DNA of 64,000 nt from Modestobacter lapidis (lineage in GTDB: Bacteria > Actinomycetota > Actinomycetes > Mycobacteriales > Geodermatophilaceae): NCBI GenBank assembly GCA_019779905.1, contig JABAKE010000019.1, forward strand, positions 19,207-83,206. The letters are read 5' to 3'. A program made the translations under genes and the position numbers. Below are positions 17,239 through 59,050 of the stretch, in pieces. The notes below the pieces were generated by a model. The model worked only from the letters and a program-made list of their open reading frames with translations. It searched no databases and had not been told where the DNA came from. How positions within the stretch are numbered: position 1 is the stretch's first letter; every line of letters starts with the position of its first letter.

Positions 17239-17300
17239 AGGACCCCGCTCCACCCCACCGCTCGCAAGCTCGCGGCGGGCCCCTGGAGCGGGGCCGTTCC
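17239..17300 (+). repeat. Family A bi-hairpin element (rpsZ-rpsH)
   Basis: The element begins at the rpsZ stop with AAGGACC. The outer stem is CCCCGCTCC (17243-17251) with GGAGCGGGG (17285-17293), 9 of 9 paired. The core is CCACCGCTCGCAAGCTCGCG, which folds into an inner hairpin. The rest of the gap to rpsH (17301-17413) shows no gene; it ends with a GAGAGG ribosome-binding site. Confidence 0.85.
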
Positions 17301-17413
17301 AGGCCCTCACTTCTGGGCCGAACAGCGCGTCACCCCACTGAGGCACCACCGATCGCCGAGAGGCCCGCGCCGATGAGCGTGCGGAACCGCGGCGAGAGAG
17401 GCAACACACACCC

Positions 17414-17824
17414 ATGACGATGACCGACCCGATCGCGGACATGCTCACGCGTATCCGCAACGCGAACTCGGCGTACCACGACGCGACCACCATGCCGTCG
17501 TCGAAGCTCAAGACGAAGGTGGCCGAGATCCTCCAGCAGGAGGGTTACATCGGCGGCTGGACCGTCAACGAGGTCGAGGTGGACGGCTCCGTCCGCAAGG
17601 AGCTGGTGGTCAGCCTCAAGTACGGGCCGAACCGGGAGCGCAGCATCGCCGGCGTCCGCCGGGTCTCCAAGCCCGGCCTGCGGGTCTACGCGAAGTCCAC
17701 CGCACTGCCCAAGGTCCTCGGCGGTCTCGGGGTGGCGATCATCTCGACGTCCACCGGGCTGCTGACCGACAAGCAGGCGAACAAGAAGGGCGTGGGTGGG
17801 GAAGTCCTCGCCTACGTCTGGTAA
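17414..17824 (+). CDS. rpsH: 30S ribosomal protein S8
   Basis: The 136-aa protein is S8 (MTMTDPIADMLTRIRNANSA, VSKPGLRVYAKSTALPKV, GVAIISTSTGLLTDKQANKK). It binds the central domain of 16S rRNA and in Escherichia coli represses the spc operon. Either of two ATGs (17414, 17420) is possible; the first follows the ribosome-binding site better. Confidence 0.98.
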   Translation: MTMTDPIADMLTRIRNANSAYHDATTMPSSKLKTKVAEILQQEGYIGGWTVNEVEVDGSVRKELVVSLKYGPNRERSIAGVRRVSKPGLRVYAKSTALPKVLGGLGVAIISTSTGLLTDKQANKKGVGGEVLAYVW

Positions 17825-17839
17825 GAGGAGCGAGCTGAC

Positions 17840-56251: not shown

Positions 56252-57424
56252 ATGCCCGTACGCGACAACGTCGAGATCGGTCTCAACCGGTTCGCCCGCC
56301 GTGGGTACGACCTCGACGAGGTCTCCCTCGTGCCCAGCCGCCGCACCCGGGACGTCGACGACGTCTCCACGGCCTGGCAGATCGACGCCTTCCGGTTCGA
56401 CATCCCGATGATCACCAGCGCCAGCGATGCGGTGGTCAGCCCGGCGACCGCCATCGCCGTCGGTGCTGCCGGGGGTCTGGGCGTGCTCAACGCCGAGGGC
56501 CTCTGGACCCGCTACGACGACCCGACCGACGTCTACCGCCAGCTCAAGGCGGCGTCGTCGGCGGAGGCCGGCCCCCCGACCGCGCTGCTGCAGCGGCTCT
56601 ACGCCGAGCCGGTGAAGCCCGACCTGGTCGCCGCCCGGGTCAAGGAACTGCACGACTCCGGGGTGACCACGGCCGTGCGGATCTCTCCGCAGCACACCCT
56701 GCGGCTCGCCCCGGCGGTGCTGTCGGCCGGGGTCGACCTGCTGGTCATCCAGGGCACCATCGTCTCCGCCGAGCACGTGACCACCTCCGGGGAGGCGCTG
56801 AACCTCAAGGAGTTCATCGCCGACCTCGACGTCCCGGTGATCGTGGGCGGGGCGGCCGACTACCAGACCGCGCTGCACCTGATGCGCACCGGCGCGGCCG
56901 GCGTCATCGTCGGCGTGGGCGCCGACAGCTGGTCCACCGCCGACGCGGTGATGGGCATCCGGGTGCCGCTGGCCAGCGCGATCGCCGACGCCGCCGCGGC
57001 CCGTCGCGACTACCTCGACGAGACCGGCGGCCGGTACGTGCACGTGATCGCCAACGGCCGGATCGAGACCAGCGGCGCCATCGCCCGGGCGCTGGCCTGC
57101 GGGGCGGACGCCGTCCAGCTGGGTGAGCCGCTGCGGTCGGCCGAGGAGGCCCCGGCCGGCGGCGTGTGGTGGGACTCGGTGGCGGCCCACCCGCGGCTGC
57201 CCCGCGGCGGCGCCTCGACGGCCGCCGCGCCGCGCGGCACGCTGGAGCAGGTGCTGCTCGGCCCGGCCGAGGCTCCCGACGGGCGCACCAACCTGTTCGG
57301 GGCGCTGCGCCGCACGATGGCCAAGACGGGGTACCGGGACCTCAAGGAGTTCCAGCGGGTCGACCTGGTCATCGGCGGCGGCAACGGCGAGACCGCACCC
57401 GCCGCCGGGCACCTGGTCGGCTGA
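56252..57424 (+). CDS. guaB3: GuaB3 family IMP dehydrogenase-related protein
   Basis: The 390-aa protein has the IMPDH barrel (RRGYDLDEVSLVPSRRTRDV, IPMITSASDAVVSPATAIAV, ADAVQLGEPLRSAEEAPAGG) but no CBS domains. The catalytic-Cys loop is replaced (GVGADSWSTADAVMG), as in mycobacterial GuaB3, so normal IMP oxidation is doubtful. The place between guaB and guaA is conserved in actinobacteria. The ATG at 56252 is the family N-terminus (MPVRDNVEIGLNRFARRGYD). Confidence 0.93.
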   Translation: MPVRDNVEIGLNRFARRGYDLDEVSLVPSRRTRDVDDVSTAWQIDAFRFDIPMITSASDAVVSPATAIAVGAAGGLGVLNAEGLWTRYDDPTDVYRQLKAASSAEAGPPTALLQRLYAEPVKPDLVAARVKELHDSGVTTAVRISPQHTLRLAPAVLSAGVDLLVIQGTIVSAEHVTTSGEALNLKEFIADLDVPVIVGGAADYQTALHLMRTGAAGVIVGVGADSWSTADAVMGIRVPLASAIADAAAARRDYLDETGGRYVHVIANGRIETSGAIARALACGADAVQLGEPLRSAEEAPAGGVWWDSVAAHPRLPRGGASTAAAPRGTLEQVLLGPAEAPDGRTNLFGALRRTMAKTGYRDLKEFQRVDLVIGGGNGETAPAAGHLVG

Positions 57425-57425
57425 G

Positions 57426-58988
57426 GTGGACTTCCCGACCGTCCTGGTCGTCGACTTCGGCGCCCAGTACGCCCAGCTCATCGCCCGGCGCATCCGGGAG
57501 GCCGGCGTCTACTCCGAGCTCGTCCCCGGTGACCTGCCGGTGGCCGACGTGCTGGCCAGGAAGCCGGCGGCGATCATCCTGTCCGGTGGGCCGTCGAGCG
57601 TGTACGCCCCGGGCGCCCCCCAGGTCGACCCGGCGCTGTTCGAGTCCGGGGTCCCGGCCTTCGGGATCTGCTACGGCTTCCAGGCCATGGCCGCGGGCCT
57701 CGGCGGCACCGTGGCCCGCACCGGTGACCGGGAGTACGGCGGAACGCAGCTGACCGTCACCACCCCCGGGCAGCTGTTCGGCGCGCTGCCGAACGAGCAG
57801 TCGGTGTGGATGAGCCACGGCGACGCGGTCAGCGCCGCTCCACCCGGGTTCACCGTGACCGCGACCAGCACCGGCGCGCCGGTGGCCGCGTTCGAGGACG
57901 TCGACCGCCGGCTGGCCGGGGTGCAGTTCCACCCCGAGGTCCGGCACACCGCACACGGGCAGTCCGTGCTCGAGCACTTCCTGTTCGACATCGCCGGCCT
58001 GGAGCCGAGCTGGACGATGGCCAACGTCGTCGAGGAGCAGGTGGCGGCGATCCGCGCGCAGATCGGGGATCGGCGGGCGATCTGCGGACTGTCCGGCGGG
58101 GTCGACTCCGCGGTGGCGGCGGCACTCGTGCAGCGGGCCATCGGCGACCGGCTCACCTGCGTCTACGTCGACCACGGCCTGATGCGCGAGGGCGAGACCG
58201 AGCAGATCGAACGCGACTTCGTCGCCGTCACCGGCGCCGACCTGCGGGTGGTCGACGCCGGCGAGCAGTTCCTCGGTGCGCTGGCCGGGGTCAGCGACCC
58301 GGAGCAGAAGCGGAAGATCATCGGCCGGGAGTTCATCCGGGTCTTCGAGCGGGCCGCCCTCGACGTCGTCGCCGACGCGCAGGAGCACGGCGAGACCGTC
58401 GACTTCCTGGTGCAGGGGACGCTGTACCCCGACGTGGTGGAGTCCGGCGGCGGATCCGGGACGGCGAACATCAAGAGCCACCACAACGTCGGCGGGCTGC
58501 CCGAGGACCTCACCTTCACCCTCGTCGAGCCGCTGCGCACGCTGTTCAAGGACGAGGTGCGCGAGGTGGGCCGCCGGCTGGGGCTCCCGGACACCCTGGT
58601 GCAGCGCCAGCCGTTCCCCGGTCCGGGCCTCGGTATCAGGATCGTCGGGGAGGTGACCGCCGAGCGGCTCACCGTGCTGCGCCAGGCCGACGCGATCGCC
58701 CGCGCCGAGCTCTCCGCGGCGTCGCTCGACACCGAGATCTGGCAGTGCCCGGTGGTGCTGCTGGCCGACGTCCGCTCGGTGGGCGTCCAGGGCGACGGGC
58801 GCACCTACGGCCACCCGGTGGTGCTGCGCCCGGTGTCCAGCGAGGACGCGATGACCGCGGACTGGACCAGGTTGCCCTACGACGTGCTGGCTCGGATCTC
58901 CACCCGGATCACCAACGAGGTGGCCGAGGTCAACCGGGTGGTGCTGGACGTGACCAGCAAGCCCCCGGGCACCATCGAATGGGAATGA
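57426..58988 (+). CDS. guaA: GMP synthase (glutamine-hydrolysing)
   Basis: The 520-aa enzyme makes GMP from XMP. The amidotransferase half has Cys82 (FGICYGFQAMA) and GVQFHPEV. The ATP-pyrophosphatase half has CGLSGGVDSAVAAALVQRA, and the dimerisation domain ends DVTSKPPGTIEWE. GTG 57426 lies one base after the guaB3 stop, so guaB, guaB3 and guaA form one unit. Confidence 0.98.
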   Translation: MDFPTVLVVDFGAQYAQLIARRIREAGVYSELVPGDLPVADVLARKPAAIILSGGPSSVYAPGAPQVDPALFESGVPAFGICYGFQAMAAGLGGTVARTGDREYGGTQLTVTTPGQLFGALPNEQSVWMSHGDAVSAAPPGFTVTATSTGAPVAAFEDVDRRLAGVQFHPEVRHTAHGQSVLEHFLFDIAGLEPSWTMANVVEEQVAAIRAQIGDRRAICGLSGGVDSAVAAALVQRAIGDRLTCVYVDHGLMREGETEQIERDFVAVTGADLRVVDAGEQFLGALAGVSDPEQKRKIIGREFIRVFERAALDVVADAQEHGETVDFLVQGTLYPDVVESGGGSGTANIKSHHNVGGLPEDLTFTLVEPLRTLFKDEVREVGRRLGLPDTLVQRQPFPGPGLGIRIVGEVTAERLTVLRQADAIARAELSAASLDTEIWQCPVVLLADVRSVGVQGDGRTYGHPVVLRPVSSEDAMTADWTRLPYDVLARISTRITNEVAEVNRVVLDVTSKPPGTIEWE

Positions 58989-59050
58989 GGGCCGTGCTGC
59001 CTCCCGCCCCTCGCTGAGGCGCGGGGCGGGGCCTGCAGGAGGGCCGCACG
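58989..59050 (+). repeat. Degenerate family A element (guaA-exchanger)
   Basis: The inner hairpin CCCGCCCC/GGGGCGGGG is intact, but the outer arms pair only through CTGC/GCAG. The right-arm pattern GCAGGAGGGCCG is typical of the family. Confidence 0.55.

What the first reader, a model, noticed from the sequence alone, without database searches (positions are those of the whole stretch)
17239..59050. A dispersed bi-hairpin repeat (family A) with covarying outer stem at gene 3' ends
At least 17 copies of a roughly 60-bp element lie in the window, nearly all directly after a stop codon and in the same orientation as the gene they follow. The core near CCGCTCGCAAGCTCGCGG and the flanks GAAGGACC...GGGGCC are conserved. 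The 8-9 bp outer stem is different in almost every copy yet stays paired: CCCCGCTCC/GGAGCGGGG, CCACCCTTC/GAAGGGTGG, CCCCCTTGC/GCAAGGGGG, CCCTGCTGC/GCAGCAGGG, CCCCTCTGC/GCAGAGGGG, CCCCGTCGC/GCGACGGGG. Conserved loop plus compensatory stem change is the mark of a selected RNA structure, probably a terminator or mRNA 3' end stabiliser; nesting and gene disruption show it also moves.
Basis: partly seen in the sequence, partly recalled or inferred. Interest (0 to 1): 0.9.

Follow-up and report, generated by a model that had tools for sequence, protein, structure and literature searches.

The report
One-way terminator repeat behind stop codons
A short repeated DNA hairpin, found again and again directly behind the stop codons of genes in one family of soil bacteria, pairs more completely on the strand opposite the gene and likely works as a one-way stop sign that would keep backward transcription out of genes.

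Summary
In detail: the window holds 15 copies at E<=1e-4, a weaker tandem unit and an interrupted outer copy. The genome has an estimated 365 copies. The repeat occurs across the Geodermatophilaceae and almost nowhere else in the order genomes searched. Both stems covary: 5 of 5 significant pairs lie in the structure, none outside, in two separate sets. Placement is exact: 71 of 104 long own-genome copies lie within 3 nt of a same-strand stop, against 1.8% of random placements, and it follows the reading frame. The strand opposite the gene may be the working one: it pairs more completely (97.7 against 92.4% of cells), turns a conserved A.C mismatch into G.U, and ends in a U-richer tail (3.3 against 1.2 T of 8). 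Its better folding energy (117 of 125 copies) is mostly base composition by a late control. I read the repeat as a terminator facing the gene from downstream. It would stop antisense or convergent transcripts, while gene-direction transcription would pass in the shadow of the terminating ribosome. Termination is untested and the means of spread unknown; no REP transposase was found in 106 family genomes. It resembles REP repeats but fails their defining features.

The parts
17237..17296 (+). copy behind rpsN (stop TGA overlaps its first letters), before rpsH
   Evidence: R1 83.6 bits; TGAAGGACC
20144..20203 (+). copy 1 nt behind rplO stop, before secY
   Evidence: R1 78.9 bits
23114..23166 (+). 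truncated copy behind map, 3' arm of outer stem cut, fused to the next copy
   Evidence: R1 hit 23125-23165, 43 bits; alignment
23168..23228 (+). second copy of the map/infA tandem
   Evidence: R1 72.3 bits
25459..25519 (+). copy behind rpsD (TAG made with its first G), before rpoA
   Evidence: R1 74.7 bits
26684..26790 (+). outer type I copy behind rpoA, its loop replaced by a type II copy
   Evidence: read directly; same nesting in G086
26709..26766 (+). type II copy nested in the 26684 copy, before rplQ
   Evidence: R1 61.7 bits
34992..35051 (+). copy read through as C-terminal extension of the gene 34513-35073
   Evidence: R1 81.3 bits
39641..39700 (+). copy behind an extra copy of the duplicated glmS 3' end
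   Evidence: R1 80.5 bits; 84-nt repeats
47418..47475 (+). type II copy, first letters form the TGA of gene 46376-47419
   Evidence: R1 56.5 bits
49209..49268 (+). copy 2 nt behind the stop of the groES-like gene 48898-49206
   Evidence: R1 85.2 bits
51017..51076 (+). copy 1 nt behind the groEL stop
   Evidence: R1 83.3 bits
51079..51123 (+). tandem type II unit
   Evidence: R1 40.6 bits
51130..51171 (+). degenerate third tandem unit
   Evidence: R1 18.3 bits, E 0.09; read
51279..51336 (-). copy 1 nt behind the stop of the convergent gene call 51637-51338
   Evidence: R1 52.3 bits
53692..53751 (+). copy 1 nt behind the stop of gene call 52959-53690
   Evidence: R1 79.2 bits
58986..59046 (+). 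diverged copy whose first three letters TGA are the stop of gene 57426-58988
   Evidence: R1 40.3 bits

Best explanation
The element is a dispersed double-stem repeat of about 60 bp set directly behind stop codons, and it likely acts as a one-way intrinsic terminator whose RNA hairpin would form on the strand opposite the gene and stop transcripts that run backwards into the gene. Shown: the repeat, its estimated copy number and family-wide spread, covariation of both stems, the exact placement behind in-frame stops, and the more complete pairing and U-richer tail of the opposite strand. Inferred: that this strand is the working one, that it is transcribed from downstream (from a convergent neighbour or from antisense starts), that polymerase releases at ...GGGGUCCUUC-N-UCA, where UCA is the complement of the stop codon, and that polymerase moving in the gene direction is not stopped. 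The proposed reason for the last point is that the gene strand lacks the U-rich tail and the ribosome ending at the stop codon lies over the 5' arm of the outer stem. That would also give a reason for the exact placement. How copies spread is not known.
For: Strand: inner pair 21-40 on the gene strand is A.C 66, G-C 21, A-T 5, G-T 0, other 4 of 96 clean copies, canonical on the other strand in 92 of 96; in relatives, read on the other strand, it is G.U 32, A-U 12, G-C 11, C-G 1, other 4, gap 1 of 61. Same nine copies: 92.4% of cells paired on the gene strand, 97.7% on the other. Held-out relatives score higher with the opposite-strand model in 39, lower in 15 and equal in 4 of 58, p 0.011. The opposite strand is more stable in 117 of 125 copies, by 0.9 kcal/mol more than dinucleotide shuffles explain, p 9e-5. 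Tail: 3.27 T of 8 on the opposite strand, 1.23 on the gene strand (159 copies), 1.69 after 42 other hairpins at convergent ends. Placement: 45 of 68 copies of 56 nt or more, 26 of 36 of 54 nt or more in a second own sample and 40 of 58 hits in relatives lie within 3 nt of a same-strand stop; 1.8% expected. Copies preceded by TGAN have a gene stop there in 33 of 35, against 325 of 1761 such sites, so the reading frame matters. Pairing is selected: 5 of 5 significant pairs in the stems, both sets. A terminator several bp behind a gene was almost completely repressed in E. coli (PMC4824070, abstract).
Against: No transcript data were available. The strand case is moderate: base composition alone gives 4.26 of the 5.17 kcal/mol folding difference; the A.C at pair 21-40 may be inherited from one ancestor, and it makes up much of the gain in paired cells; the outer stem shows no bias (A.C 28, G.U 25; clean set 20 to 10, p 0.10); without pairs 21-40 and 24-37 the bias is 44 to 34, p 0.31, or 30 to 13, p 0.014 in the clean set. 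The consensus scanner found no terminator-like site at any element in 17000-36900 on either strand; the tail reaches 4 T of 8 in only 43% of copies. Use per gene end is about the same before co-oriented genes (38 hits, 245 gaps) and convergent genes (22 hits, 140 ends; tandem units counted), so there is no special enrichment where convergent traffic is expected. In about ten convergent pairs the 3' end also abuts the other gene's stop, where the same ribosome shadow should weaken it. A bottom-strand DNA hairpin would show the same wobble bias.
Confidence: 0.32

Rival explanations
1. The repeat is mainly a selfish mobile hairpin: a DNA structure is what is kept, for copying or by repair of one arm from the other, and copies survive behind stop codons because they do little harm there.
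For: Dispersal: about 365 copies per genome by extrapolation, patchy occupation of the same gene ends in relatives, nested and tandem copies. The outer stem is kept without strand bias, as a DNA palindrome would be. Young-looking copies are already at stops: 18 of 23 with nearest-paralogue identity 0.93 or more.
Against: DNA insertion cannot read frame, yet copies preceded by TGAN have a gene stop there in 33 of 35 against 18.5% of such sites. No Y1_Tnp protein in 106 family genomes, while 5 of 14 control genomes ring. No clean empty site or target duplication could be read. It does not predict the U-rich tail.
Confidence: 0.3
2. One reading: a hairpin in the gene's own mRNA that ends transcription or blocks 3' exonucleases.
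For: Orientation and adjacency to the gene's stop codon; the gene strand still folds at about -33 kcal/mol, and its weaker fold is mostly composition; mRNA stabilisation is among the roles proposed for REPs (PMC3733652 abstract).
Against: The gene strand has a conserved A.C mismatch in the inner stem and no U tail. Copies lie between co-oriented ribosomal genes (rpsN|rpsH, rplO|secY, rpsD|rpoA, rpoA|rplQ).
Confidence: 0.24
3. A translational brake: the stem next to the stop codon stalls the terminating ribosome, as reported for E. coli REPs less than 16 nt from a stop.
For: Most copies start within 3 nt of the stop; REPs within 15 nt of a stop stall ribosomes (Liang 2015 as cited in PMC12306157, passages read).
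Against: Copies sit behind ribosomal-protein and groEL genes, where stalling would be costly; does not explain the opposite-strand features.
Confidence: 0.1

Closest known systems
REP elements / BIMEs with RAYT transposases (GTAG super-family; PMC3733652 abstract and one section, PMC2817692 passages)
   Same: High copy number, palindromic, extragenic, mostly behind genes; GTAG REP ends often supply the TAG stop; dimers and clusters; some inside genes.
   Different: No GTAG tag, two nested stems of about 60 nt instead of 20-40 nt, no RAYT gene found in 106 family genomes, most copies within 3 nt of stops, pairing more complete on the strand opposite the gene.
CGTC-tagged REPs (dRS3, RPE) without a dedicated transposase (PMC3733652)
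   Same: Dispersed palindromes that lack a known transposase; some lie inside genes.
   Different: No CGTC tag; here the element is nearly confined to one actinobacterial family. A find for actinobacteria, Geodermatophilus and Blastococcus in that paper gave nothing.
Intrinsic (Rho-independent), unidirectional and bidirectional terminators
   Same: GC-rich stem followed by a U-rich stretch on one strand; also found between convergent genes. Unidirectional E. coli terminators are described in PMC4731013 (passages).
   Different: A dispersed family of related copies, facing the gene they abut, also between co-oriented genes; tail only moderately U-rich and missed by the consensus scan.
Mycobacterial MIRU repeats (recalled, not looked up)
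   Same: Actinobacterial dispersed repeats joined to stop codons.
   Different: MIRUs are recalled to overlap stop and start codons and to carry small reading frames; the present element is a double palindrome.

Membership tests
RAYT-associated REP (GTAG super-family) | unpaired GTAG tag at one end | tested here: not met
   Copies mostly start GAAGGACC; a TAG arises only in the TAGAAGG subset
RAYT-associated REP (GTAG super-family) | RAYT / Y1_Tnp transposase in the genome | tested here: not met
   0 of 106 family genomes, own included; 5 of 14 control genomes ring
RAYT-associated REP (GTAG super-family) | high copy number, extragenic, downstream of genes | tested here: met
   81 hits in 1.06 Mb of long contigs read from their first base; 60 behind a same-strand gene, 14 behind an opposite one, 2 inside, of 76
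CGTC REP | CGTC tag at one end | tested here: not met
   consensus ends
MITE | target site duplication | tested here: inconclusive
   orthologous empty sites too diverged to read
Intrinsic terminator | stable GC-rich hairpin | tested here: met
   mean -38.5 kcal/mol on the opposite strand, -33.3 on the gene strand
Intrinsic terminator | U-rich tract directly after the stem | tested here: inconclusive
   3.27 T of 8, at least 4 T in 43% of 159 copies; consensus scan negative
Intrinsic terminator | transcript 3' ends at the element | not testable with these tools
   no RNA data held
Any Rfam 15 family | covariance model match at gathering score | tested here: not met
   0 matches in the window

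The most novel reading that the evidence does not exclude
A bacterial family has paved hundreds of gene ends with a transcription diode: a dispersed terminator turned to face the gene and placed exactly in the shadow of the terminating ribosome, so that translated sense transcription passes and untranslated antisense transcription is stopped at the edge of the coding region. A repeat would thus have become genome-wide insulation against antisense transcription.
Probability: 0.24. Interest if true: 0.85.

Novelty: new variant of a known kind. Interest (0 to 1): 0.6.

Why it matters
If the diode reading holds, it gives bacteria a sequence-encoded, direction-selective barrier against antisense transcription at gene ends. 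It would also offer a compact part for genetic circuits and make the coupling of ribosome and polymerase in actinobacteria directly testable at hundreds of natural sites. Even if only the repeat itself stands, it is a large repeat family with frame-aware placement and without a RAYT gene, of which my ten paper searches showed no description. It raises the question of how a DNA repeat comes to sit at in-frame stop codons.

Tried and rejected
RAYT/IS200-type mobilisation: rejected as the present source, Y1_Tnp absent in 106 family genomes. Stop codons brought in by truncating insertions: rejected, proteins with an element behind them end at about the same residue as those without at most of 13 gene ends; one site (rpsM, 23896-24252) had overhangs of 3 and 9 residues with the element against a median of 0 without. 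Simple targeting of any TGA: rejected. A general habit of this genome to put hairpins right behind stops: rejected, other hairpins with 9-bp perfect arms start anywhere from 0 to 80 nt after the stop. My first version of that test, by folding 75 nt, did not discriminate because GC-rich DNA folds everywhere. A first covariation test on 45 ungapped copies without average-product correction gave only one significant pair, in the structure; the larger, corrected test is. Folding energy as main proof of the strand: withdrawn after the shuffle control; for this the confidence of the best explanation was cut from 0.40 to 0.32 and that of the novel case from 0.30 to 0.24. A loose stem scan gave useless output. 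Reading the empty site from relatives failed; spacers are too diverged. One search's query turned out to be an open frame antisense to gene call 47435-48709 and was used only to locate the region.
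Full report
What is there. The window is a 72.7% GC stretch with ribosomal-protein, rpoA, glmS and groEL genes; gene names are my reading of the sequence and gene order, no family search was run. A covariance model built from nine clean copies (R1) finds 15 copies in the window at E<=1e-4 and a weaker tandem unit at E 0.09. One more, outer copy at 26684-26790 is split by a copy in its loop. Rfam has no match. Each copy has an outer stem of 8-9 bp behind GG(A), an inner stem of 8 pairs, and a loop. 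On the gene strand the loop reads CTCG-CAAG-CTCG, with the middle two letters AA, AG, AC or GA in most copies that keep this form; 46 of 161 copies do not. Two forms are seen: type I (59-61 nt) and type II (about 57-58 nt, with CCCCGTCC/GGACGGGG as commonest stem); the names are mine.

How common. In 1.06 Mb of the own genome, long contigs read from their first base (C184:1-400000, C90:1-400000, C338:1-260000), there are 81 hits, tandem units included (61, 20 of the 39), which extrapolates to about 365 in 4.78 Mb. The window is denser (15 in 64 kb). The whole-genome search scored only 150 of 4347 first-look candidates and cannot give the count. All 22 other genomes of the genus that were drawn have it at E<=1e-4, and none of 16 genomes from elsewhere in the order. 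At E<=1e-13, 82 of 112 family genomes and 9 of 12 genera have it. In 298 genomes of the order at E<=1e-9, 51 match, of which two lie outside the family with one hit each. Nothing outside the order was searched. Contig lengths tie G104 and G096 to Goekera deserti and a Geodermatophilus strain, so the family is Geodermatophilaceae. The own genus is not named by any search.

Covariation is real. In nine copies, 20 cells changed on both sides and none on one side; no shuffle of 500 reached the first number. With a tree-aware null that re-deals inferred substitutions over columns (my script, average-product corrected), 5 pairs reach E<0.05 in 90 own copies and 5 in 59 copies from relatives. All lie in the structure, three in the outer and two in the inner stem, and none outside. 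These alignments were fitted by the model and so lean towards its structure. An earlier run with 45 copies and no correction gave one significant pair.

Which strand. The gene strand carries a conserved A.C mismatch in the inner stem (pair 21-40: A.C 66, G-C 21, A-T 5, other 4, G-T 0 of 96 clean copies). On the other strand these are G.U, G-C and A-U; in relatives G.U 32, A-U 12, G-C 11, C-G 1, other 4, gap 1 of 61. Pair 24-37 behaves alike (A.C 22, G-T 0 of 96). Mirror-image counting of the same nine copies gives 97.7% paired cells against 92.4%, much of it from pair 21-40; relatives 97.1 against 93.3%; own copies 96.7%. A model built on the opposite strand scores 39 of 58 relatives higher, 15 lower, 4 equal, p 0.011. 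RNAfold favours the opposite strand in 117 of 125 copies, mean difference 5.17 kcal/mol. But dinucleotide shuffles of the same copies give 4.26, because that strand is richer in G and U; the rest is small, though significant (83 of 125, p 9e-5). The outer stem shows no bias (A.C 28, G.U 25; clean set 20 to 10), and without pairs 21-40 and 24-37 the bias is 44 to 34 in all copies and 30 to 13 in clean ones. Shared descent makes such cells dependent. The strand case is therefore moderate. Read on the opposite strand the loop is CGAG-CUUG-CGAG. I recall this as tandem sheared G.A pairs capped by a CUUG tetraloop; that label rests on memory.

The tail. After the stem the opposite strand continues UUC-N-UCA, the last three letters being the complement of the stop codon. 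It has 3.27 T of 8 on average (159 copies), the gene strand 1.23, 42 other hairpins at convergent ends 1.69, and 21 at tandem gaps 1.19. A strict consensus scan nevertheless finds no terminator at the elements in 17000-36900.

Placement. A home-made gene finder gives 820 genes in 864 kb. Of 76 hits, 60 follow a same-strand gene, 14 an opposite one and 2 lie in gene calls. Of copies of 56 nt or more, 45 of 68 lie within 3 nt of a same-strand stop. A second own sample, partly from stretches known to hold hits, gives 26 of 36, and relatives at regions matching the window 40 of 58 hits, some of them shared by descent. Random placement in non-coding DNA would give 1.8%. TGA targeting alone does not explain it: 33 of 35 copies preceded by TGAN have a gene stop there, against 325 of 1761 such sites. 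Other hairpins of the genome are spread over 0-80 nt. Of the 23 copies not adjacent, by eye five are nested in other copies, two are tandem, three lie 5-8 nt from a stop, four have their 3' end within 3 nt of the opposite gene's stop, one is the read-through copy 34992, one follows the duplicated glmS end, and seven are unexplained.

History. At 13 gene ends where any relative carries the element (not all have it in the window), 1 to 7 of 13-20 relatives have it within 3 nt of the stop, the rest another hairpin or none, and protein ends are mostly unchanged. The nested pair behind rpoA recurs in G086, another genus. Forms with only the outer stem occur behind groEL in G006 and G007. At 34992 the element is read through as a C-terminal extension, also in G004; G021 has it at the same place. 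No transposase of the Y1 type was found in 106 family genomes.

Mechanism. The pair types, the tail and the copies between co-oriented ribosomal genes point to a terminator that faces the gene. In E. coli a terminator several bp behind a gene was almost completely repressed, an effect of ribosome-polymerase coupling (PMC4824070, abstract). Stop-adjacent placement would therefore spare gene-direction transcription and leave antisense transcription exposed, which makes the exact placement meaningful. This last step is inference, and so is the choice of strand.

Known work. REPs lie behind genes, and GTAG REPs often supply a TAG stop (PMC3733652, abstract, passages and one section; PMC2817692, passages). 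REPs within 15 nt of a stop are said to stall ribosomes (PMC12306157, passages). Unidirectional E. coli terminators are used in PMC4731013 (passages). A genome study of the family (PMC9686282, passages) mentions only CRISPR-type repeats in the passages found. Ten paper searches (listings) showed no description of this repeat; the library holds open-licence papers only.

Noticed in passing
window 31259-31720: A 77-bp unit repeated head to tail over about 460 bp, overlapping the 3' end of the minus-strand gene call 31653-32126.
   Followed up: no
window 39476-39642: The last bases of glmS with its stop are repeated by an 84-bp tandem duplication; the element 39641 follows the last copy, so it was probably stop-adjacent before the duplication.
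   Followed up: partly
window 51221-51272: Long perfect palindrome (GAACGCCGAGAGGGCCGGTCCGAC..) between convergent genes, kept by eye in 16 of 18 relatives listed at this site (L108 lacks it, L109 has a variant); looks like a bidirectional terminator.
   Followed up: no
window 35657-35726 and 45822-45891: Another dispersed repeat with GAGCGCCAGCGAGGA motifs, 74% alike; not related by eye to the family studied.
   Followed up: no
L084, L088, L089 (rplO|secY junction): In several relatives the element is reversed and built into a larger terminator-like hairpin ending GGGGTCCTT; other species have an unrelated hairpin with tail TCTGCTGT there.
   Followed up: partly
G000:C184:298702-298918, C90:391867-392077: Head-to-tail arrays of the element with a 54-nt period, lacking part of the outer stem at each joint.
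   Followed up: partly
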